Positions 4,612 through 60,544 of a DNA stretch of 64,000 nucleotides are shown here, one piece after another (positions within the stretch are counted from its first letter, which is position 1; every line of letters starts with the position of its first letter). The DNA lies in NCBI RefSeq assembly GCF_026015625.1, contig NZ_JAPDVG010000001.1, positions 1,922,001 to 1,986,000 of the forward strand, given 5' to 3'. Under the pieces are notes generated by a model that worked only from the letters and a program-made list of their open reading frames with translations, ran no database searches and had not been told where the DNA came from. The translations under genes and the position numbers were made by a program. The stretch is from Segatella copri. Its GTDB lineage: Bacteria > Bacteroidota > Bacteroidia > Bacteroidales > Bacteroidaceae.

Positions 4612-5634
4612 ATGAACAACGTATTTGTATATTGCGAGGTAGAAGGCACAACCGTTGCCGAAGTATCTCAGGAATTGCTCACCAAGGGTCGTAAGCTCGC
4701 TAACCAGCAGGGCGTGGAGCTCCATGCCATCGTAGCAGGTACCGGCATCAAGGGTCAGGTAGAGGATCAGATTCTCCCTTATGGTGTAGATAAATTATTT
4801 GTTTTCGATGCTGAGGGATTGTTCCCATATACTTCAGCTCCTCATACAGACATTCTCGTCAACCTCTTCAAGGAGGAGAAGCCTCAGATTGCATTGATGG
4901 GTGCTACCGTTATCGGTCGCGACCTCGGTCCTCGTGTTTCTTCTTCATTGACCAGCGGTCTTACCGCCGACTGTACAGAGCTTGAAATCGGTGATTACGA
5001 CGATAAGAAGAGCGGCAAGCACTACGAGGGTCTGCTCTATCAGATTCGTCCTGCCTTCGGTGGTAACATCGTGGCTACTATCGTAAATCCAGACCACCGT
5101 CCACAGATGGCTACAGTCCGCTCTGGCGTGATGCAGAAGAGCATCTACGAGGGTGAGTGCAAGAAGGAAGTAGTTTACCCTGAGGTAAGCAAGTATGTTC
5201 CTGCTGAGGACTTCGTAGTAAAGGTACTCGACCACCACGTAGAGGCTGCCAAGCACAACCTGAAGGGGTCTGCCATCGTCGTAGCCGGCGGTTATGGCGT
5301 AGGAAGCAAGGAAGGCTTCGACCAGCTCTTCGAGTTGGCTCATCTCCTCCATGGTGAGGTAGGTGCTTCCCGTGCTGCCGTAGATGCAGGCTGGGTAGAT
5401 CACGACCGTCAGATTGGTCAGACTGGTGTTACCGTTCATCCTAAGGTTTATATCGCCTGCGGAATCTCTGGTCAGATTCAGCACATCGCCGGTATGCAGG
5501 ATTCAGGCATCATCATCTCTGTAAACAACGATCCTGATGCTCCAATCAACAAGATTGCCGACTACGTTATCAACGGCAATGTTGAGGATGTGGTTCCTAA
5601 GCTCATCAAGTACTACAAGCAGAATTCTAAGTAA
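4612..5634 (+). CDS. etfA: Electron transfer flavoprotein, alpha subunit
   Basis: The 340-residue FAD-binding subunit pairs with EtfB to carry electrons from the neighbouring acyl-CoA dehydrogenase. The C-terminal FAD domain has the expected elements: VVAGGYGVGSKEGF, LGEVGASRAAVD-like HGEVGASRAAVDAGW, GQTGVTVHPKVYIACGISGQIQH and NNDPDAPINKIADY. Length is normal. The gene lies between etfB and the dehydrogenase with short gaps (13 and 35 bp), which supports one transcript and one complex. Confidence 0.94.
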   Translation: MNNVFVYCEVEGTTVAEVSQELLTKGRKLANQQGVELHAIVAGTGIKGQVEDQILPYGVDKLFVFDAEGLFPYTSAPHTDILVNLFKEEKPQIALMGATVIGRDLGPRVSSSLTSGLTADCTELEIGDYDDKKSGKHYEGLLYQIRPAFGGNIVATIVNPDHRPQMATVRSGVMQKSIYEGECKKEVVYPEVSKYVPAEDFVVKVLDHHVEAAKHNLKGSAIVVAGGYGVGSKEGFDQLFELAHLLHGEVGASRAAVDAGWVDHDRQIGQTGVTVHPKVYIACGISGQIQHIAGMQDSGIIISVNNDPDAPINKIADYVINGNVEDVVPKLIKYYKQNSK

Positions 5635-5669
5635 TCTGCATTACACATTATTTAAATAAGAAAAGCAAA

Positions 5670-7373
5670 ATGGCTAATTATTATACAGACCATCCTGAAA
5701 TAGAGTTCCACTTGAATCATCCGCTCATGAAGCGTGTTGTGGACTTGAAGGAAAGAAATTATGTAGAAAAAGACCAGTTTGAAGATGCTCCAGTAAACTA
5801 CGAGGATGCCATCGAGAACTACAAGCGATTGCTGGATATTACCGGCGATGTAGCTGCTAACATCATCGAACCAAACTCTGAGGATGTTGACCTCGAAGGT
5901 CCACACCTGGAGAACGGTCGCATGATCTATGCCAGCAAGACATTCGAGAACCTCGATGCTACCCGCAAGGCTGGCCTCTGGGGCTTGTCAATGCCTCGTC
6001 GTTACGGCGGTTTGAACTTGCCTAACGCCATCTTCTCTATGGCTTCAGAGATTATCGCTGCTGCCGATGCCGGTTTCCAGAACATCTGGTCGCTCCAGAG
6101 CTGTATCGATACACTCTATGAGTTCGGTTCTGAGGAGCAGCGCCAGAAGTACATCCCTCGCATCTGCGCAGGCGAGACCATGAGTATGGACTTGACTGAG
6201 CCTGATGCAGGTTCTGACTTGCAGCGCGTAATGCTGAAGGCTACACAGGATGAGGACGGCACATGGCGTCTGAACGGTGTGAAGCGTTTTATCACCAATG
6301 GTGACTCAGACATCCACTTGGTTCTGGCTCGTTCTGAAGAAGGCACCAAGGATGGTCGTGGTCTTTCTATGTTCATCTACGACAAGCGTGATGGTGGCGT
6401 AACCGTTCGTCACATCGAGCACAAGTTGGGTATTCACGGTTCTCCTACCTGCGAGTTGGTTTACAAGAATGCCAAGGCAGAGCTTTGCGGTAACACCCGT
6501 CTCGGTTTGATTAAGTACGTGATGGCTCTCATGAATGGTGCCCGTCTGGGTATTGCAGCTCAGAGTGTAGGTGTTGAGCAGGAGGCTTACAATGAGGGTT
6601 TGGCCTATGCCAAGGAGCGTGCTCAGTTTGGTGAGAAGATCATCAACTTCCCAGCTGTATACGACATGCTTTCAAGAATGAAGGCTAAGTTGGATGCAGG
6701 CCGTTCACTCCTCTACTGCTGCGCTCGCTACGTAGATATCTACAAGGCTTTGGAAGACATCGCCCGCGACACTAAGCTCACTCCAGAGGAGCGTCAGGAG
6801 ATGAAGAAATACACCCGCTTGGCTGATGCATTTACTCCATTGGCTAAGGGTATGAACTCAGAGTATGCCAACCAGAATGCATACGATGCCATCAGCATTC
6901 ACGGTGGTTCTGGTTTCATCATGGAGTACAAGTGCCAGCGCCTGTTCCGTGATGCCCGCATCTTCTCTATCTACGAGGGTACCACCCAGCTTCAGGTAGT
7001 AGCAGCTATCCGCTACATCACCAACGGCACTTATCTCAGCATAATCAAGGAGATGTTGGAGAACGAGGTTTCAGATGATTTGAAGGCATTGAAGGAGCGT
7101 GTTGCTAAGCTCGTAGAACTTTACGAGGCAGCCATGAACAAGGTGAAGGAGGCAAACGATCAGGCAGTTCACGACTTCCTGGCTCGCCGTCTCTACAACA
7201 TGACTGGCGACATCGTAATGTCTCTCCTCATCCTCGACGATGCTACCAAGGCTCCAGAGATGTTTGCCAAGAGTGCCAACGTATATGTTCGCATGGCAGA
7301 GGAGGAAGTTCTCGGTCATTCAGCATACATCCAGAACTTCAAGGCAGAAGACTTGGAGAGCTTCAAGGCATAA
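5670..7373 (+). CDS. Acyl-CoA dehydrogenase family protein
   Basis: The 567-residue flavoenzyme oxidises an acyl-CoA to the enoyl-CoA (or runs in reverse) and exchanges electrons with the ETF encoded just upstream. The N-terminal and middle domains include MDLTEPDAGSDLQ and GVKRFITNGDSD. The C-terminal domain has IHGGSGFIMEY, then IFSIYEGTTQLQ, where the glutamate near residue 436 is at the usual position of the catalytic base. It is about 190 residues longer than short-chain enzymes, with an extra C-terminal helical region, as in the 560-600-residue anaerobic and proteobacterial class. Substrate unknown; no other beta-oxidation gene is in the window. Confidence 0.88.
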   Translation: MANYYTDHPEIEFHLNHPLMKRVVDLKERNYVEKDQFEDAPVNYEDAIENYKRLLDITGDVAANIIEPNSEDVDLEGPHLENGRMIYASKTFENLDATRKAGLWGLSMPRRYGGLNLPNAIFSMASEIIAAADAGFQNIWSLQSCIDTLYEFGSEEQRQKYIPRICAGETMSMDLTEPDAGSDLQRVMLKATQDEDGTWRLNGVKRFITNGDSDIHLVLARSEEGTKDGRGLSMFIYDKRDGGVTVRHIEHKLGIHGSPTCELVYKNAKAELCGNTRLGLIKYVMALMNGARLGIAAQSVGVEQEAYNEGLAYAKERAQFGEKIINFPAVYDMLSRMKAKLDAGRSLLYCCARYVDIYKALEDIARDTKLTPEERQEMKKYTRLADAFTPLAKGMNSEYANQNAYDAISIHGGSGFIMEYKCQRLFRDARIFSIYEGTTQLQVVAAIRYITNGTYLSIIKEMLENEVSDDLKALKERVAKLVELYEAAMNKVKEANDQAVHDFLARRLYNMTGDIVMSLLILDDATKAPEMFAKSANVYVRMAEEEVLGHSAYIQNFKAEDLESFKA

Positions 7374-7396
7374 GATTATCATTACAAATATTATAT

Positions 7397-7440
7397 AAAA
7401 AGTCCGTGGGCAGGAAATTTTTCTTGTCCACGGATTTTTC
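7397..7440 (+). terminator. Terminator after the etf operon
   Basis: GTCCGTGGGCAGGAA pairs with TTCTTGTCCACGGA (one bulge or mismatch), followed by a T-rich run. Confidence 0.8.
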
Positions 7441-7564
7441 TTTTCTATACAAAGATAGGGATTTTCCCTTCTACTTTAGGGAATTCTTCTCTTTTTATTT
7501 CAAAAGAAAGCTGTACTTTTGCAACCATAAAACAATATAATAACTTATAAAAACAGTATCGCTT

Positions 7565-8227
7565 ATGAAAAGAAATGAAGTGATGGCGCTTATCGCCACA
7601 ACCATATTGATGTTTGCCGTATGCCTCTCGGCTTCGGCTAAAGGAAAAAGAAACGTGGAGCGGGGAATGACCAAGCAGGAAGTAATAGCCATTCTTGGAA
7701 AACCTAAGCTCACCAGTTTCGACATGTATGGGGACAAATGGGAATATGACAAATATAATTATCTGTCTGGAGATTCCAAGTACATCACGGTCTTCTTCGA
7801 CAGAAACGGAAAGGTTGTGCAGTACGATACAAAAATCATAGAACTAAACAGCCAAACATCGAATGTACAGCAGCCACACCCAACTCCACCCCTCTACGAT
7901 GGAAGATGTGATCCTGATGGCAGAATGGATTACGGCTATTGTCTCGATGATGCGTCCTTCTTCAAACTATATAATAAGGTGAAGAAGGCAAGCTTTGATG
8001 ACAACAAGTTCGACCTGATAGAAGTGGCTAGCCTCGGATGCTATTATTCTTGTGCCCAAGCCGTCAGCATGATGAATATATTCACTTTTGGTGACAGCAA
8101 GATGAAAGCCCTCAAACTGATGGCACCGCATATCGTGGACCCACAGAATGTCATTGTCATCTATCAGCTATTCAGCTTCGACAGCGAGAAGCAAAAGGTA
8201 GGAGAAATATTAAGAAGCAGCAGATAA
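7565..8227 (+). CDS. Secreted protein: BamE/SmpA-like plus DUF4476-like domains
   Basis: The 220-residue protein has a signal peptide (hydrophobic to about residue 25, ending ASA). Residues about 30-85 (MTKQEVIAILGKP, then DKWEYDKYN and FFDRNGKVV) resemble the small BamE/SmpA fold, in which a helix follows a GMTKxEV motif. Residues about 120-215 resemble the DUF4476 helical domain of Bacteroidetes, with FDDNKFDLIEVAS, a helix ending NIFTFGDSKMKALKLMAPHIVDPQN, and FSFDSEKQKVGEIL. The combination suggests a periplasmic or surface protein. It has its own promoter (TACTTTTG near 7512-7519). Function unknown; domain calls are by eye. Confidence 0.65.
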   Translation: MKRNEVMALIATTILMFAVCLSASAKGKRNVERGMTKQEVIAILGKPKLTSFDMYGDKWEYDKYNYLSGDSKYITVFFDRNGKVVQYDTKIIELNSQTSNVQQPHPTPPLYDGRCDPDGRMDYGYCLDDASFFKLYNKVKKASFDDNKFDLIEVASLGCYYSCAQAVSMMNIFTFGDSKMKALKLMAPHIVDPQNVIVIYQLFSFDSEKQKVGEILRSSR

Positions 8228-8321
8228 TTATCTAGTATCTTAAAAAATGATATCAGCTATGATATAAGAGACTTTCATGTTAAATTATGCATATTGTTTA
8301 GTCGGTTTAACAAAATAGTTG

Positions 8322-8329
8322 TATTTTTG
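8322..8329 (+). promoter_or_regulatory. -7 box for small ORF and methyltransferase
   Basis: TATTTTTG matches TAnnTTTG and lies 27 bp before the 16-codon ORF at 8356. Confidence 0.6.
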
Positions 8330-8355
8330 TAAAATCAATTAAACAATATTGAGTT

Positions 8356-8406
8356 ATGATTCAAAAAGAAGTAATACCTGTATGGAAATGGTTACTCGAT
8401 ACATAA
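8356..8406 (+). CDS. Possible 16-residue leader peptide
   Basis: The frame reads MIQKEVIPVWKWLLDT and stops at 8404-8406, 12 bp before the methyltransferase start. It is the first ATG after the -7 box. It could couple translation to the downstream gene or act as a leader. There is no independent evidence that it is translated. Confidence 0.3.
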   Translation: MIQKEVIPVWKWLLDT

Positions 8407-8418
8407 ATTGCAAAACAA

Positions 8419-9144
8419 ATGAATACAAAGATATTATCAAAAGACAAAGACCCGATGGGCGCTGCTATCCTTGATTATCAGAAATCGGGAAGAACAGGAA
8501 GATTACGTGTGCTCTCTTCTATGTTCGAAGAGGACGAAATGCCGGTGAAACATCTCTTCAGAAAAGTTGAGGAGATGCCGATGCTGGAGCAGAAGGCCTT
8601 GCAACTCACAAAAGGGCGTGTACTGGATATCGGAGCCGGCAGCGGCTGCCATACGCTCGCCCTGCAGGAGAAGGGCTTGGAGGTAAAAGCGATTGATATT
8701 TCTCCTCTGAGCTGCGAAGCGATGGAACTGAGAGGAGTGATGGATGCGGAATGCATCAATCTTTTCGATGAACATCTGGAAACAGGGTTCGATACCATCC
8801 TCCTTCTGATGAACGGAACGGGTATCGCCGGAAAGATAGAACATCTCCCTACCCTCTTCAACCGTCTCAAGGCTTTGCTCAACAAGGGCGGACAGATTCT
8901 CATCGATTCCTCTGACCTCAAATATATCTACGAGAATGAAGACGGAAGTTTCGACATCAATCTGAATGGTGCCTACTATGGTGAAGTGGATTATCAGATG
9001 ATCTACAAGGATGTAAAGGGCGACCGCTTCAACTGGCTCTACGTGGATTTCCCATTACTCAAGTCCATTGCCGAAACCTGCGGGTTGCATGGTGAACTCG
9101 TGGCAGAAGGCGAGCACTACGACTATCTGGCGAGAATTTTCTAA
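8419..9144 (+). CDS. Class I SAM-dependent methyltransferase
   Basis: The 241-residue protein has SAM motif I, RVLDIGAGSGCHTLAL (around residues 69-84), followed by motif II acid in VKAIDISPLSCEAM and a motif IV-like segment FDTILLLMNGTGIAGK. The substrate cannot be inferred; the N-terminal 55 residues are family-specific. It is a single gene with a shared bidirectional terminator downstream. Confidence 0.8.
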   Translation: MNTKILSKDKDPMGAAILDYQKSGRTGRLRVLSSMFEEDEMPVKHLFRKVEEMPMLEQKALQLTKGRVLDIGAGSGCHTLALQEKGLEVKAIDISPLSCEAMELRGVMDAECINLFDEHLETGFDTILLLMNGTGIAGKIEHLPTLFNRLKALLNKGGQILIDSSDLKYIYENEDGSFDINLNGAYYGEVDYQMIYKDVKGDRFNWLYVDFPLLKSIAETCGLHGELVAEGEHYDYLARIF

Positions 9145-55679: not shown

Positions 55680-56065
55680 TATTGATTACTATTTCATTTG
55701 TACCTACACAGCCATTAAACCTCAGAAGTTGTTTTCTAGGGGCAAAGATAAAGAATTTATCCGAAACTACAAAGAAAAATAAGGGATAAATGTATAAAAG
55801 ATGTGCTGGAAATATAAAATGGCAAAACTGATGCTTGACATTGCCTATCAAGCATCAATTTTGCAAAATTAGACAATAATCGGTAGTCAACTAGCCTATT
55901 GATTATTTTAATTCACCCTTATCTCAACACTGCGTTAAATTAACATTTAATTATCTGTAAATCAATAACTTATATTAAGAAACGCTTATAAAAATTCAAC
56001 TATAAAAAGTTGATCAAGTCGCTGATTTTCAGTAACTTTGTAGATCACGACAAATACAATATTAC
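55680..56065. other. Intergenic region before the insertion sequence
   Basis: The left half carries the promoter of the hypothetical gene (TATCTTTG, 55743-55750 minus). The right half holds TAACTTTG at 56033-56040, the likely transposase promoter. The left end of the insertion sequence must lie here, but I could not identify its inverted repeat. Confidence 0.5.
55743..55750 (-). promoter_or_regulatory. -7 box of the hypothetical gene (TATCTTTG)
   Basis: Exact match on the minus strand. The surrounding 55731-55806 is about three-quarters identical to 53524-53600. Confidence 0.65.
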
Positions 56066-56734
56066 ATGAATACAGGACTTGACCAATATATGGATATCTT
56101 TAAAGATGCAGTTGAAGATTCAGCTGCAAAGATAACAAAAAGTTTCGAGAAAATACTCATCGAGGTGATAATTTTGTTCATGGTAATACCAAGAAAGATA
56201 AATTTCACCCAAATGGGGAGGTATGGCTCGCATGTTGAACAAACCTATCGCAACGCATTCGGCTTGAAAAAGTCGAAGTGCATTGATTGGCTCAAACTTA
56301 ATGTCTCACTTGCCAAGCGCTTCTTTGGTAAACAGGGAAGATGGGCTATTGCCATTGATCCCAGCTACATCAGCAAAGCTGGCAAGAAAACTCCACATAT
56401 CGGTCGTTTTTGGTCGGGATGTGCACAGTCTGTTAAACATGGTCTCGAAATCATGGGTATTGGACTCATTGATATTGATACCAAAGACTGCATGATGTTA
56501 AGAGCCCACCAGTCGCTAAATAATAAAGAACTGAGTCTTAGAAACAAGACTATGGTAGATTTCTATATCAGCGTCATTAAGCGTTATCCCAAGGCACTCA
56601 AGTGTAAAGTTAGACTTGTCATCTGGTAGATGCCGAATGGCAAGAAGAAACTATTCTTCTCTACAGACACCTCACTTTCAGGTGAAGAGGTACTTCTTTA
56701 TTATAGGACCAGGTTCCAGATCGAATTTTGCTTT
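56066..56734 (+). pseudogene. IS4-type transposase, 5' part (decayed, interrupted)
   Basis: The first 187 codons include the DDE first aspartate region WAIAIDPSYISKAGKK. The frame then stops at a TAG (56627-56629), continues in the same frame as MPNGKKKLFFSTDTSLSGEEVLLYYRTRFQIEFCF, and breaks at 56734 where the RIT element begins. The second catalytic aspartate region (VADAxFS type) is missing between IKRYPKALK and CKVRLVIW, which suggests an internal deletion. The rest continues at 60269. The stop probably replaced a glutamine codon. Confidence 0.85.
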
Positions 56735-56755
56735 TATGACAAGAATATCATTATG
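56732..56755 (+). repeat. Left inverted repeat of the RIT element
   Basis: TTTTATGACAAGAATATCATTATG matches the reverse complement of 60214-60237 at 23 of 24 positions. Confidence 0.9.
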
Positions 56756-56888
56756 TCAAGTTAGACAGATTTGACCTGTGAAAAATTGTTGATTATATGA
56801 ATTTTACAGCAAAAACTTATCATAAATACTTCTCATAACGTTATATTACAGTATAGGGCATAAGCCCCAAAACTAAATATTATATATT

Positions 56889-58124
56889 ATGCAAGAAGTA
56901 AAGATTCAAGTCCTAATGGATCGATGCATCAAGTACTTTGAAGACCATTGTTACACAGAGAATAGAATATCTGTGTATAAATGTCTATGGCGTAAAGGCA
57001 TCGTCCACTACATGTCGGCTCACGACATTGAGAATTATTCCCCTTCTATTGGTGAAGAGTTCCTGTCAACCTGTCATCATTATGGTGAGATTCGTCACCA
57101 GGAGCGTGAAATGATTCGCAGTATTCAAGTCCTTGACGATATGCTTTCGTTAGGGCTTATACGTAAGCGTTGTTTCACTCCTGTTTTCCATACCCTCGAT
57201 GGGAAGATTGGCATGGAGATGGAAAAACTCATCATCCATCTTACTTCTCTTCGTAGAAGTCTGGTGACTATAAATGACTATCGTTTGTATCTAAGCGAGT
57301 TCTTAACTCATCTCAATCTCAGTGGTGTCAACAGTGTGTCCGAGATTGCGGATAAACACATCTTGTCGTTTGTCTCGTCCCATCCGACCAACAAGGTAAA
57401 CATAGTTTCTGCCCTGCGTGTCCTCTTTCGTTTCTGGAAAGCGGAGCATATTGTAGATGGAAGGTTTGATGGTCTGTTTGACACATATAAGCTGCGCAAG
57501 AAAGAGCGTATTCCTTCGTTTTACACAGCAGCAGAGGTAAATATAGTAGAGAACTCCGTGAATAGAAGCAGCGGCGTTGGCAAGAGAAACTATGCAATGT
57601 TATTACTTGCATCACGTTTGGGGTTGCGAGCTTCGGACATAGCCAACCTACAGTTCTCTAATATAGACTGGGACAACAATGTACTAACCCTTGTGATGCA
57701 TAAGACCGGAAAGGTCATAGAGTTGCCATTGCTTGCGGATGTTGGTAATGCCATCATAGATTACTTGCAGCATGGAAGACCTCAGACAGTTTCACAGAAT
57801 GTATTTCTTTCTTGCAAGGCACCTTATGTGCCAGCAACCAAAAGTATGGTATGCTCTGCAATAAACAACATCATCTGTAAATCCGGAATAGATGTATCGG
57901 CCAAGCATCATGGTCCACATTCTCTACGTCATTCTCTTGCAAGCGTCATGCTTGAGAAAGGCACGACGTTACCTGTCATATCCGAATCGCTAGGGCATCG
58001 CAGTACGGAAACAACTCTCACTTATCTTAAGATTGACATAAAGTCTTTGATAGAGTGTGCCATTCCTGTACCGCCAGTTCCAGATGCCTTTTACAAACAG
58101 AGAGGAGGTGCGTTCTATGGCTGA
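56889..58124 (+). CDS. ritA: Tyrosine recombinase RitA
   Basis: The 411-residue integrase has an N-terminal SAM-like DNA-binding region and a catalytic domain with the R-K-H-R-H-Y set: arginine in LGLRASDIANL, lysine in HKTGK, HSLRHSLAS, GHRSTET and the nucleophile tyrosine in LTYLKID. It is the longest of the three, as usual for RitA. It overlaps ritB by 8 bp (ATGGCTGA), indicating translational coupling. Confidence 0.92.
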   Translation: MQEVKIQVLMDRCIKYFEDHCYTENRISVYKCLWRKGIVHYMSAHDIENYSPSIGEEFLSTCHHYGEIRHQEREMIRSIQVLDDMLSLGLIRKRCFTPVFHTLDGKIGMEMEKLIIHLTSLRRSLVTINDYRLYLSEFLTHLNLSGVNSVSEIADKHILSFVSSHPTNKVNIVSALRVLFRFWKAEHIVDGRFDGLFDTYKLRKKERIPSFYTAAEVNIVENSVNRSSGVGKRNYAMLLLASRLGLRASDIANLQFSNIDWDNNVLTLVMHKTGKVIELPLLADVGNAIIDYLQHGRPQTVSQNVFLSCKAPYVPATKSMVCSAINNIICKSGIDVSAKHHGPHSLRHSLASVMLEKGTTLPVISESLGHRSTETTLTYLKIDIKSLIECAIPVPPVPDAFYKQRGGAFYG

Positions 58125-59121
58125 GCAATTTAAATATTCCAGCGTGTTAGCCTCATATATGAATCATCTTCTTGACATTAAAATATCTGCAGGAATCAGT
58201 GCGTTGCGTACCAGATGGATATTGAAAGAGATTGACGACTTTGCCAATGCAGAGTGCCTAAAGGATCCTCATATCAAAGAGGTGTTCTTCAAAAAGTGGA
58301 GAGCTACACGTGTGGCGGACTGTGACAGAACTTTATATTCCAAATGTTCCGTATGGTGTCAATTGACAAGACTGATGTGCAGGTGTGGCTGTGTATGCTT
58401 CATTCCACGAATGCCCAAGCAACCGAAGTCTGATTTTACTCCGTATATATTCACAAAGGAGCAGATTGGCGCAATCTTTTCTGCAGCGGACGAATATAGA
58501 CTATATGACATACGCATGGGTACAGCTCTCATAGCCATGCCAGCTCTTCTTCGTTTACTATATAGTACAGGAATGCGTATATCTGAGGCTCTTTCCATCC
58601 GCAACAAACATGTTCATCTGGATGAAGGTTACATTCGCTTAGATAAAACCAAGAACGGAAGTGAAAGGATCGTACCTTTATGTGAGTCGATGAAGACGGT
58701 ACTTACATCTTATATGGAGTATAGAAACAATATGCCCATCAAAGACATAGCTGCAGGAAATGGTTTTTTGTTTGTAAAATCGGACGGGACTAGCATCAAG
58801 GCTAATAGTGTATATCAGCATCTGCGCAAATTGCTGGACACATGCGGAATTCCCCATAAGGGGAATCATCATGGACCACGCGTTCACGACCTGCGACATA
58901 CGAATGCAGTACATGCTCTTGTACAGATGGGGCACAAAGGAATGGACTTGTATGCCAGTTTGCCAATTCTCTCAACATGCCTGGGACATCACTCGCTGAA
59001 AGCGACAGAGCAGTATGTTCGCCTCACATGCAACATGTATCCAGAATTGGAAGAGCAATGTTCTGAAATCAACGCTTTTGTCTATCCAAAGATATGTAAA
59101 GCCTATGACTACGACGACTGA
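58117..59121 (+). CDS. ritB: Tyrosine recombinase RitB
   Basis: The 334-residue integrase starts at ATG 58117, with AGGAGG at about 58103, inside the end of ritA; an earlier in-frame start is unlikely. Catalytic elements are GMRISEALSIR, the lysine in DKTKNGSE, HDLRHTNAVHAL, GHHSLKATEQY with the tyrosine. A helix MGHKGMDLYASLP interrupts the usual spacing between LRH and GHH. It overlaps ritC by 17 bp. Confidence 0.92.
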   Translation: MAEQFKYSSVLASYMNHLLDIKISAGISALRTRWILKEIDDFANAECLKDPHIKEVFFKKWRATRVADCDRTLYSKCSVWCQLTRLMCRCGCVCFIPRMPKQPKSDFTPYIFTKEQIGAIFSAADEYRLYDIRMGTALIAMPALLRLLYSTGMRISEALSIRNKHVHLDEGYIRLDKTKNGSERIVPLCESMKTVLTSYMEYRNNMPIKDIAAGNGFLFVKSDGTSIKANSVYQHLRKLLDTCGIPHKGNHHGPRVHDLRHTNAVHALVQMGHKGMDLYASLPILSTCLGHHSLKATEQYVRLTCNMYPELEEQCSEINAFVYPKICKAYDYDD

Positions 59122-60136
59122 CTTTGCCAAACATTTAAGCCGCTTTCTGGTAGAATACCTGCCTCATGAGCGTAATGTAAGCCCTAACACCATATCCTCC
59201 TATAGAGATGCATTTGTACAATTTATTGACTTCATGAAAGATATTAAAGGAATCACAGTTGAAAAATTGCAATTGAAACATCTCACGAGAGTAAGTGTAA
59301 CCGAGTATCTCGAATGGCTACTTAACAAGCGAAAATGCTCTGCAGCGACACGTAACTATCGGCTTGCTGCCATTCATTCTTTTTGTCATTACTTGCAATA
59401 TAGCGTCATAGAAATGATAGAAGAATGGCAAAAGATCCTAACTATTAAAGCCATAAAAACATCAGGGACAACACTTAACTACCTGACAATAGAAGGTATC
59501 AAGTTGTTGCTGGCTCAGCCTGATACATCAACTTGGAGAGGCCGAAGAAATCTCGCTTTACTCTCACTAATGTATGATACGGGAGCAAGAGTCTCTGAAA
59601 TAGCAGATCTTACTGTGGATAGTGTGCGCATAACCCATGAGCCATATACCATACGTCTGTTCGGAAAAGGACGCAAAGCACGAATAGTACCGCTTGTAAA
59701 GGAACAGGTGTCAATTCTATGTGAATATATGGAAGAGAATCATCTTAACGATTGCAACAAAGCTGCGTCTCCACTTTTCTATAATGGCAGAAATGAAAAG
59801 CTAACGCGTGAGGGTATCACATACATTCTTTGTACTTATGCAAACATGGCAAGGAAGGTGTCTCCAGAACTTATTCCGCAAAGGATTAGTTGTCACTCTA
59901 TACGTCATAGTCGAGCTATGCATCTTCTACAGGCTGGAGTCAACCTTATTTATATTAGAGATTTGCTAGGACATGTCTCTATTCAAACAACGGACATTTA
60001 TGCTCGTGCAGACTCTAAAGCAAAACGTGAGGCGTTCGAAAAGGCGTATACAGATCTCACACCTAACCGAGAGGCTGATAAATCTTGGGAAAACAATAAA
60101 AATCTCAGAGATTGGCTCAGAGGTCTGAAGAAATAG
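59105..60136 (+). CDS. ritC: Tyrosine recombinase RitC
   Basis: The 343-residue integrase starts at ATG 59105 (MTTTTDFAKHLSRFLVEYLPHERNVSPNTISSYRDAF, a typical phage_int_SAM domain). Catalytic elements are TGARVSEIADL, the lysine in FGKGRKARIVPL, CHSIRHSRAMHL and GHVSIQTTDIYARA with the tyrosine. It is closest in style to XerC/D. The three recombinases probably act together at the element's ends. Confidence 0.92.
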   Translation: MTTTTDFAKHLSRFLVEYLPHERNVSPNTISSYRDAFVQFIDFMKDIKGITVEKLQLKHLTRVSVTEYLEWLLNKRKCSAATRNYRLAAIHSFCHYLQYSVIEMIEEWQKILTIKAIKTSGTTLNYLTIEGIKLLLAQPDTSTWRGRRNLALLSLMYDTGARVSEIADLTVDSVRITHEPYTIRLFGKGRKARIVPLVKEQVSILCEYMEENHLNDCNKAASPLFYNGRNEKLTREGITYILCTYANMARKVSPELIPQRISCHSIRHSRAMHLLQAGVNLIYIRDLLGHVSIQTTDIYARADSKAKREAFEKAYTDLTPNREADKSWENNKNLRDWLRGLKK

Positions 60137-60213
60137 TTATCATTATGAGAAGTCGAACGGAGAAGCATTCTCCTAAAGTTCTGATCTTCAATAATACTTT
60201 TCCATTCACTTCT

Positions 60214-60237
60214 CATAATGTTATTCTTGTCATAAAA
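60214..60237 (-). repeat. Right inverted repeat of the RIT element
   Basis: Reverse complement of the left repeat with one mismatch. It is followed by a hairpin-forming 34 bp, 60235-60268, in which AAAGTAATTATG pairs with CATAATTACTTT at the very border. Confidence 0.88.
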
Positions 60238-60268
60238 GTAATTATGTAAAGCTTCTCATAATTACTTT

Positions 60269-60544
60269 CGTGACGCCAAAGGCTATACTGGTCTTATGGA
60301 CTGCCAGGCTCGTGATAAGTGGAAACTCGATTTTGCTTTCAATGCTTCGTTCACATCACTAAATGTTGCCAGGGTAACTATGAAGGAGATGGGAATGGAA
60401 TATTCTATGTCTTCATTTAAGTCACTGGTGACCAACATTTATCTGGTGAAACGAATTTTTAAAGCAAGCGGGTACACCCCGAACCGAACTTTAATTAGCA
60501 AAATTTTCAAAGATCTCTCGTGCTTACAGCGTATAGCTGCTTAG
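60269..60544 (+). pseudogene. IS4-type transposase, 3' part
   Basis: The frame resumes directly at the element border with RDAKGYTGLMDCQARDKWKLDFAFNASFTSLNVARV and ends at a stop at 60542-60544. Joined to the 5' part, YRTRFQIEFCF|RDAKG restores the IS4-family YREK motif (Y-x2-R-x3-E-x6-K) exactly; the insertion lies between E and K. Confidence 0.88.

What the first reader, a model, noticed from the sequence alone, without database searches (positions are those of the whole stretch)
56731..60268. RIT element inserted exactly in the YREK catalytic motif of an IS4-type transposase
Seen directly: three overlapping tyrosine recombinase genes with complete catalytic residues, 24-bp inverted repeats, and a host reading frame that stops at codon TTT (56732-56734) and resumes at CGT (60269). 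Joined, the host reads YRTRFQIEFCF|RDAKG, restoring Y-x2-R-x3-E-x6-K. Few RIT elements have borders this well defined. The host also lost its second aspartate region and has a nonsense codon, so decay of the IS may have preceded the insertion.
Basis: partly seen in the sequence, partly recalled or inferred. Interest (0 to 1): 0.72.

Follow-up and report, generated by a model that had tools for sequence, protein, structure and literature searches.

The report
Jumping gene targeting catalytic-motif codons
A small mobile DNA element with three recombinase genes sits exactly in the part of a transposase gene that encodes its active site, and many of its relatives in other bacteria sit in strongly conserved parts of quite different genes, so these poorly understood elements appear to favour such places.

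Summary
A RIT element (three intact, overlapping tyrosine recombinases; 3,502 bp, 56734-60235) splits an IS701/IS4-type transposase inside its YREK motif.

It is not a one-off. Ten junctions in IS701/IS4- and IS1634-type transposases fall at the same codon. RITs from three phyla split other genes at conserved motifs, among them ArdC HExxH (6), group II intron RT (2) and AbiEii (3). Of 19 junctions scored, 17 rank above the 70th percentile of within-gene conservation; two lysozyme junctions do not (about the 26th).

Layout is L-s-RIT-s'-P-s-R. At four shared targets P keeps to one side of the target (16 of 16), not to one RIT end. I infer a RIT+P circle with two equivalent attachment cores. Mobility is unshown. 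A 2023 paper's table lists RIT target specificity as not tested; the main RIT paper (Ricker 2013) could not be read.

The parts
56066..56733 (+). Upstream half of the interrupted IS701/IS4-type transposase gene (with in-frame 279-bp deletion near 56585-56598 and stop TAG 56627-56629)
56728..56733 (+). Left 6-bp spacer TTGCTT (identical to the empty site)
56734..60235 (+). RIT element proper, 3,502 bp, from outer half-site to outer half-site
56734..56760 (+). Left end: tandem half-sites TTATGACAAG (56734-56743) and TTATGTCAAG (56751-56760)
56889..58124 (+). ritA, tyrosine recombinase, 411 aa
58117..59121 (+). ritB, tyrosine recombinase, 334 aa; overlaps ritA by 8 bp
59105..60136 (+). ritC, tyrosine recombinase, 343 aa; overlaps ritB by 17 bp
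60209..60235 (-). Right end: tandem half-sites, inner 60209-60218, outer 60226-60235
60236..60241 (+). Inner spacer AAGTAA, reverse complement of TTACTT
60242..60261 (.). Palindrome P, TTATGTAAAGCTTCTCATAA: two RIT half-sites head to head
60262..60267 (+). Right (outer) 6-bp spacer TTACTT
60268..60544 (+). Downstream half of the interrupted transposase gene (reads RDAKG... at the junction)

Best explanation
It is a RIT (recombinase in trio) element integrated by tyrosine-recombinase site-specific recombination into a degenerate DNA target that overlaps the codons of a conserved active-site motif. Shown by sequence: the integrated layout is L-s-RIT-s'-P-s-R, where s is a 6-bp spacer, s' its reverse complement (with some mismatches), and P a 20-bp palindrome made of two RIT half-sites; the empty target is L-s-R; at targets hit more than once P lies on the same side while the RIT may point either way; most scored junctions fall in highly conserved stretches of the host genes. 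Inferred: the moving form is a circle RIT-s'-P-s with two equivalent core sites (P half-site, 6-bp spacer, RIT end). Either core can cross over with L-s-R by 6-bp exchange, which puts the RIT end next to L and P next to R and lets the RIT insert in either orientation. A second crossover with another target copy, or exchange between two RIT copies, gives RITs flanked by inverted homologous gene halves and P-only junctions. Also inferred: recognition is of DNA, and conserved motifs are used because they are sequences that recur across many gene copies.
For: Empty sites: 4 of 4 close IS copies for the window, and three more in other genes, with flanks 100%, 98% and 93% identical: L156 against L330, L152 against L331 (a clean 6-bp repeat), L147 against L332.
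Same codon: 10 of 10 P-side junctions printed for IS701/IS4/IS1634-type transposases read (F/Y)-(R/K/H)-x-x-K in one phase; six border a RIT, four a P without RIT (G080, G043, two sides in G142).
Other targets: complementary Pfam coordinates on the two sides, e.g. AbiEii 33|34, ArdA 46|47, IstB 112|112, PcfJ 88|87, ArdC zincin 53|53, RT 126|122.
Conservation: 19 junctions scored in 10 families, mean percentile 0.85, 17 of 19 above 0.70; the mean of the 10 family means is 0.89, reached by 0 of 1,000,000 uniform draws.
Spacers: inner spacer against the reverse complement of the outer P spacer 4.8 of 6 (24 ends; shuffled 1.8); against the other RIT end 4.8 of 6 (17 ends; shuffled 1.8); 0 of 20,000 shuffles reach either.
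P side fixed per target in 16 of 16: transposase motif 6, ArdC 6, AbiEii 2, RT 2; P is next to the RIT right end in 9 and the left end in 7.
Inverted homologous flanks in 6 of 9 elements with no or two P, and 0 of 18 with one P (p = 0.0003). Two P-only junctions between inverted downstream halves, L144 and L321, found after the model predicted them (note).
Against: No excised circle, transposition or recombinase binding is shown. Two lysozyme junctions (L080b, L081, one shared site about six codons before FEG) lie in a poorly conserved stretch (percentiles 0.25 and 0.27); others are only moderate (IstB L108 0.72, PcfJ L087 0.75, lysozyme L135 0.78). The families scored were picked after I had seen the junctions, so that choice was not blind; one search tried 25 further junctions and could score only 5 (mean 0.69). 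Some targets are not catalytic as far as I know (PcfK, PcfJ, RhuM, HU, NikA-like), and 6 of 37 elements with a placed end plus L155 have no assigned gene. Spacers do not match in a few elements (L123 1 of 6, L081 2 of 6). In L123 the transposase-like DNA motif lies on the antisense strand of an HsdR-type gene with P next to its upstream half, so protein meaning is not what is read. In PcfJ, P is next to the upstream half in L087 and the downstream half in L118, at sites three codons apart. L117, L085 and L134 have no P found and no inverted flanks. P-only junctions L140 and L019 have one flank that does not fit the simple prediction.
Confidence: 0.75

Rival explanations
1. Ordinary RIT insertion: the YREK position is a coincidence of one insertion, and RITs insert more or less anywhere in non-essential mobile DNA.
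For: Many hosts are mobile-element or accessory genes, where insertions are tolerated. RITs in transposase genes and radC were already noted (PMC3414803 and PMC2864759, passages read). Two lysozyme junctions lie in poorly conserved sequence.
Against: Ten junctions at one codon in several IS families; six at ArdC HExxH; three at one AbiEii position; 17 of 19 scored junctions above the 70th percentile of within-gene conservation. Tolerance of insertion does not explain position within the gene.
Confidence: 0.08
2. The palindrome P is not part of the RIT but a separate small repeat (MITE- or REP-like, or the stub of a second deleted RIT) that happens to sit beside it.
For: P also occurs alone (L019, L140, L144, L321). 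It consists of two RIT half-sites and nothing else, as a fully deleted RIT would.
Against: One P next to the RIT in 18 of 27 elements with both flanks readable (17 by the script's threshold plus L118 set by hand), including Cupriavidus pHG1 and Acidithiobacillus, and beside the seven alphaproteobacterial and Rhodococcus RITs with an assigned gene. P half-sites mostly follow the RIT's own TTATG or TTATC class. The spacers on the two sides of P tend to be reverse complements of each other.
Confidence: 0.15
3. A copy-out mechanism like that proposed for SE elements (one strand transferred, then replicated) rather than cut-out and paste-in of a RIT+P circle.
For: SEs also use a 6-bp spacer and place the attB 6 bp on one side and the element's 6 bp on the other (PMC10214605, passages read); the window shows the same split, TTGCTT left and TTACTT right.
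Against: No fourth gene (Tfp/Srap or GinD) between the RIT ends: apart from antisense and overlapping frames, the open frames of 60 aa or more there are the three recombinases. Sequence alone cannot separate the two routes.
Confidence: 0.25

Closest known systems
RIT elements (Van Houdt 2009/2012; Ricker 2013)
   Same: Three overlapping tyrosine recombinases in the order A, B, C, about 3.5 kb, terminal inverted repeats; RitB related to that of Cupriavidus pHG1 (30% identity); a palindrome overlapping the inverted repeat was noted in 2012.
   Different: In the passages I could read, no target rule, no 6-bp spacer rule and no rule for the side of the palindrome is given; PMC10214605 lists RIT target specificity, empty site and movement as not tested. 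Ricker 2013 and Van Houdt 2009 were not held.
Strand-biased circularizing elements (SE) and GInts
   Same: Several tyrosine recombinases or related proteins, inverted terminal motifs (SE), 6-bp spacer with the target and element copies on opposite sides (SE); one SE inserted in the IS3 transposase gene insJ.
   Different: They carry a fourth conserved gene; no palindromic P is described in the passages read; RIT has three recombinases only.
Tn916-like and CTnDOT-like coupling sequences
   Same: Short spacer exchanged with the target, mismatches allowed (recalled, not from a call).
   Different: One integrase plus Xis and arm sites; no P unit; different targets (recalled).
Homing introns and inteins
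   Same: They also settle in active-site codons of conserved genes (recalled).
   Different: They splice out and keep the gene working; the RIT breaks it. Mechanism and enzymes are unrelated (recalled).

Membership tests
RIT element | Three adjacent, overlapping tyrosine recombinase genes in the order ritA-ritB-ritC on one strand | tested here: met
   overlaps of 8 and 17 bp
RIT element | Each recombinase carries the catalytic R, HxxR, H and Y residues | tested here: met
   alignments to XerD (RitC) and a XerC-like enzyme (RitA, RitB)
RIT element | Relationship to named RITs | tested here: met
   RitB finds Cupriavidus necator pHG1, where three integrase genes are annotated in a row and type as A, B, C (whose queries included the pHG1 proteins themselves)
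RIT element | Terminal inverted repeats of about 28-34 bp and total length about 3.5 kb | tested here: met
   34-nt arms; 3,502 bp; published values
RIT element | Mobility | not testable with these tools
   empty sites and scattered copies imply it; no transposition event or circle seen
SE / GInt | Fourth conserved gene (Tfp/Srap or GinD) | tested here: not met
   no fourth co-directional gene of 60 aa or more between the ends, other than a frame overlapping ritB
IS701/IS4-type transposase (host gene) | DDE fold with YREK motif | tested here: met
   uninterrupted copy matches PF13546 and PF01609 above cut-off and IS701/IS4 models below cut-off; Y-x2-R-x3-E-x6-K read directly in those copies

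The most novel reading that the evidence does not exclude
RIT elements as a whole are catalytic-motif-homing hyperparasites. Each RIT clade has a three-recombinase machine whose DNA target coincides with strongly conserved codons of genes that are common on other mobile elements (transposases, IS21 helper, group II intron RT, conjugation and anti-restriction genes, toxin-antitoxin and restriction genes). They move as a RIT+P circle with two equivalent attachment cores, so orientation is free while the palindrome marks one side of the target, and in doing so they knock out the competing element.
Probability: 0.5. Interest if true: 0.85.

Novelty: new member of a known kind. Interest (0 to 1): 0.73.

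Why it matters
RIT elements have been described since 2009, yet a 2023 table still lists their target specificity, empty site and movement as not tested. This window gives an exact filled and empty site, and the comparison gives a testable target rule, a 6-bp spacer rule, a defined extra site (P) and predicted side products that were then found. If right, it would help explain why RITs have been seen in transposase genes and radC, give a simple way to delimit them, and add a family of elements that lands in active-site codons of its competitors.

Tried and rejected
A close-relative scan of genome contigs with RitC found one partial locus, L058, whose end could not be read. Plasmid DNA search of the whole region gave three weak partial hits. 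The 120 listed protein homologues of the uninterrupted transposase (of 2,881) were 84% identical or more and so too alike to rank conservation; divergent copies were used. P halves resemble inner and outer half-sites about equally (10 against 6, 8 ties), so no claim is made about which recombinase binds P.

Dropped before counting: of 51 trios, two were duplicates (L105, L106) and 12 had truncated or unreadable ends (L093, L094, L115, L120, L121, L125-L128, L131, L137, L139); 37 remain. Of 14 plasmid loci, six gave no inverted repeat (L137, L139, L145, L148, L150, L154) and L155 no assigned gene. In one search, 27 of 37 could be scored for both flanks; L118's P (0.6 palindromic) was set by hand. 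Pfam was run on three of the five ArdC flanks resolved and on L138; L152 and L156 were read by motif. L107 (IS66, 24 residues) and L081 (lysozyme) were assigned by eye, and L085 (AbiEii) scores just under Pfam's cut-off. Catalytic roles of the motifs (YREK, HExxH, Walker A, Toprim DxD, RT QGG, IS66 and IS21 acidic residues, lysozyme FEG) are recalled.

Papers: passages of PMC3414803, PMC2864759, PMC10214605 and PMC8138268 were seen (in PMC8138268 only a reference-list entry); Ricker 2013, Van Houdt 2009 and PMC5737581 were not held. That I found no earlier target rule rests on searches and those passages.
Full report
What is there. Between 56734 and 60235 lies a complete RIT element with three overlapping tyrosine recombinase genes. 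RitC aligns with XerD, RitA and RitB with a XerC-like enzyme, with the catalytic residues in place. The ends are inverted repeats built from two tandem half-sites, TTATGnnAAG, 17 bp apart start to start. Outside the right end come AAGTAA, a 20-bp palindrome P (TTATGTAAAGCTTCTCATAA) and TTACTT, then the host gene. Outside the left end is TTGCTT and the host gene.

Empty site. The window's own assembly is not held. Among 199 relatives of the nearest held genome, three genomes carry four close uninterrupted copies of the host IS. All four read GAATTTTGCTTTCGTGA over the site. The insertion therefore left TTGCTT on the left and has TTACTT on the right, a 6-bp repeat with one mismatch. The host copy is also damaged by an in-frame 279-bp deletion and a TAG; the order of events is open.

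Host family. The uninterrupted transposase matches DDE_5 and DDE_Tnp_1 in Pfam and scores best against an IS701 model, then IS4, both below cut-off. The element splits Y-x2-R-x3-E-x6-K between E and K.

The same codon elsewhere. Nine other P-bordered junctions at this motif were read from eight other genomes: G049 and one side in G142 in IS1634-type genes, and G081, G101, G072, G080, G043, G140 and the other side in G142 in IS4-type genes. With the window that makes ten, all in one phase, F or Y then R, K or H, and K three residues later (the G140 copy has a stop codon in the motif). Family names for L011 and both L144 halves come from NCBIfam matches below cut-off; the rest are by motif. Six of the ten border a RIT end; G080, G043 and the two sides in G142 border a P without recombinase genes in the stretch fetched. 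The RIT pieces are not recent copies of the window's: 71-73% DNA identity for the ends in G072, G049 and G081 and 55% for RitA in G140; the G101 match is only 54 bp long (87%).

Other targets. RitB was found in 14 of 199 relatives (E up to 1e-20), 17 of 393 order genomes and 28 of 398 genus genomes (both E up to 1e-30), with overlap between the sets. With five plasmid records added, 51 trios were listed, 49 without duplicates, and 37 had at least one end I could place. Thirty-one of the 37 could be given a host gene, by Pfam, NCBIfam or, for L107 and L081, by eye: AbiEii (3, all at profile position 33/34; L085 just under cut-off), IS66 (3), IS21 IstB (2) and IstA-like (1), PcfK (3), PcfJ (2), phage-type lysozyme (4), RhuM (2, position 47), the window's IS701/IS4 type and a second IS4 type (L117), and one each of ArdA, ArdC, topoisomerase III, HU, an amidase, an HsdR-type gene, a helicase, a NikA-like gene and a protein with a BNR-associated domain far from the junction (L082). 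From plasmids of Alphaproteobacteria and Rhodococcus, five more split ArdC-type genes at HExxH and two split a group II intron reverse transcriptase at QGG. Three empty sites were found for these, with flanks 100%, 98% and 93% identical.

Conservation. For 14 junctions in nine families, uninterrupted homologues were aligned with the two halves kept apart, and the eight residues round the junction were ranked within the gene. Percentiles run from 0.72 to 0.997, mean 0.90, and 0.87-0.91 for windows of 6 to 16 residues. I had seen the junctions when I chose these families, so the choice was not blind. Those two (L080b, L081) share one site about six codons before the conserved FEG and go against the rule. 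Over all 19 the mean is 0.85; the mean of ten family means is 0.89, reached by 0 of 1,000,000 uniform draws.

The palindrome and spacers. In 24 P-bearing ends, the spacer between RIT and P matches the reverse complement of the spacer on P's far side at 4.8 of 6 positions, and in 17 ends the spacer at the other RIT end at 4.8 of 6, against 1.8 for shuffles in both. So both RIT and P tend to be flanked by reverse-complementary spacers, and the pair together restores the direct repeat. Where several RITs share a target, P is on the same side in 16 of 16 (transposase motif 6, ArdC 6, AbiEii 2, RT 2), while it is next to the RIT right end nine times and the left end seven times. P thus goes with the target side, not with a RIT end. 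Two PcfJ insertions with P on opposite sides are three codons apart and were not counted as one target (L087, L118). In L123 the transposase-like DNA motif is antisense in an HsdR-type gene and P follows the DNA motif.

Side products. Six of nine elements with no P or two P have inverted homologous flanks, against none of 18 with one P (p = 0.0003). For example, L112 has IS66 downstream halves and a P on both sides, and L090 has RhuM upstream halves and no P. The circle model also predicts a P alone between two downstream halves (noted): L144 (IS1634-type and IS4-type halves) and L321 (two IS66 halves) are such junctions. Two other lone P sites fit only on one side (L140 and L019).

Mechanism. 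The simplest reading is a circle RIT-s'-P-s with two equivalent cores. Strand exchange over the 6-bp spacer with L-s-R gives L-s-RIT-s'-P-s-R in either RIT orientation. This step is inferred. A copy-out route as proposed for SE elements is not excluded.

Known or new. The element is a RIT. What I did not find in the passages seen is the target rule, the spacer rule or the rule for P's side. One 2012 paper mentions a palindrome overlapping the inverted repeat, and a 2023 table lists target specificity, empty site and movement of RITs as not tested. The main RIT paper (Ricker 2013) was not readable here, so priority is not claimed.

Noticed in passing
L334 (NZ_CP039696.1) about 5003-8931: A RIT end lies in the ArdC-type zincin gene, but three hypothetical genes lie between that end and ritA (6776), so this RIT may carry about 1.6 kb of passenger genes.
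   Followed up: partly
L103 (G127:C42) 4985-7448: RitC and partial RitB in inverted orientation to a second partial RitB and RitC: two decayed RITs joined within ritB.
   Followed up: no
L080 (G027:C20): Two different RITs (RitB 48% and 40% identical to the window's) within 15 kb on one contig; one borders a lysozyme gene.
   Followed up: partly
window 56585-56598: In-frame 279-bp deletion in the host transposase with a 14-bp overlap of the two alignment pieces, suggesting deletion between short repeats.
   Followed up: partly
L119 (G370) and L120/L121: More distant trios; L119 has another half-site sequence (P made of AAATCCGAAA); ends of L120 and L121 not resolved.
   Followed up: no
window 55815-55871: A 24-nt inverted repeat with a 9-nt loop near the outer end of the IS, hairpin-like.
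   Followed up: no
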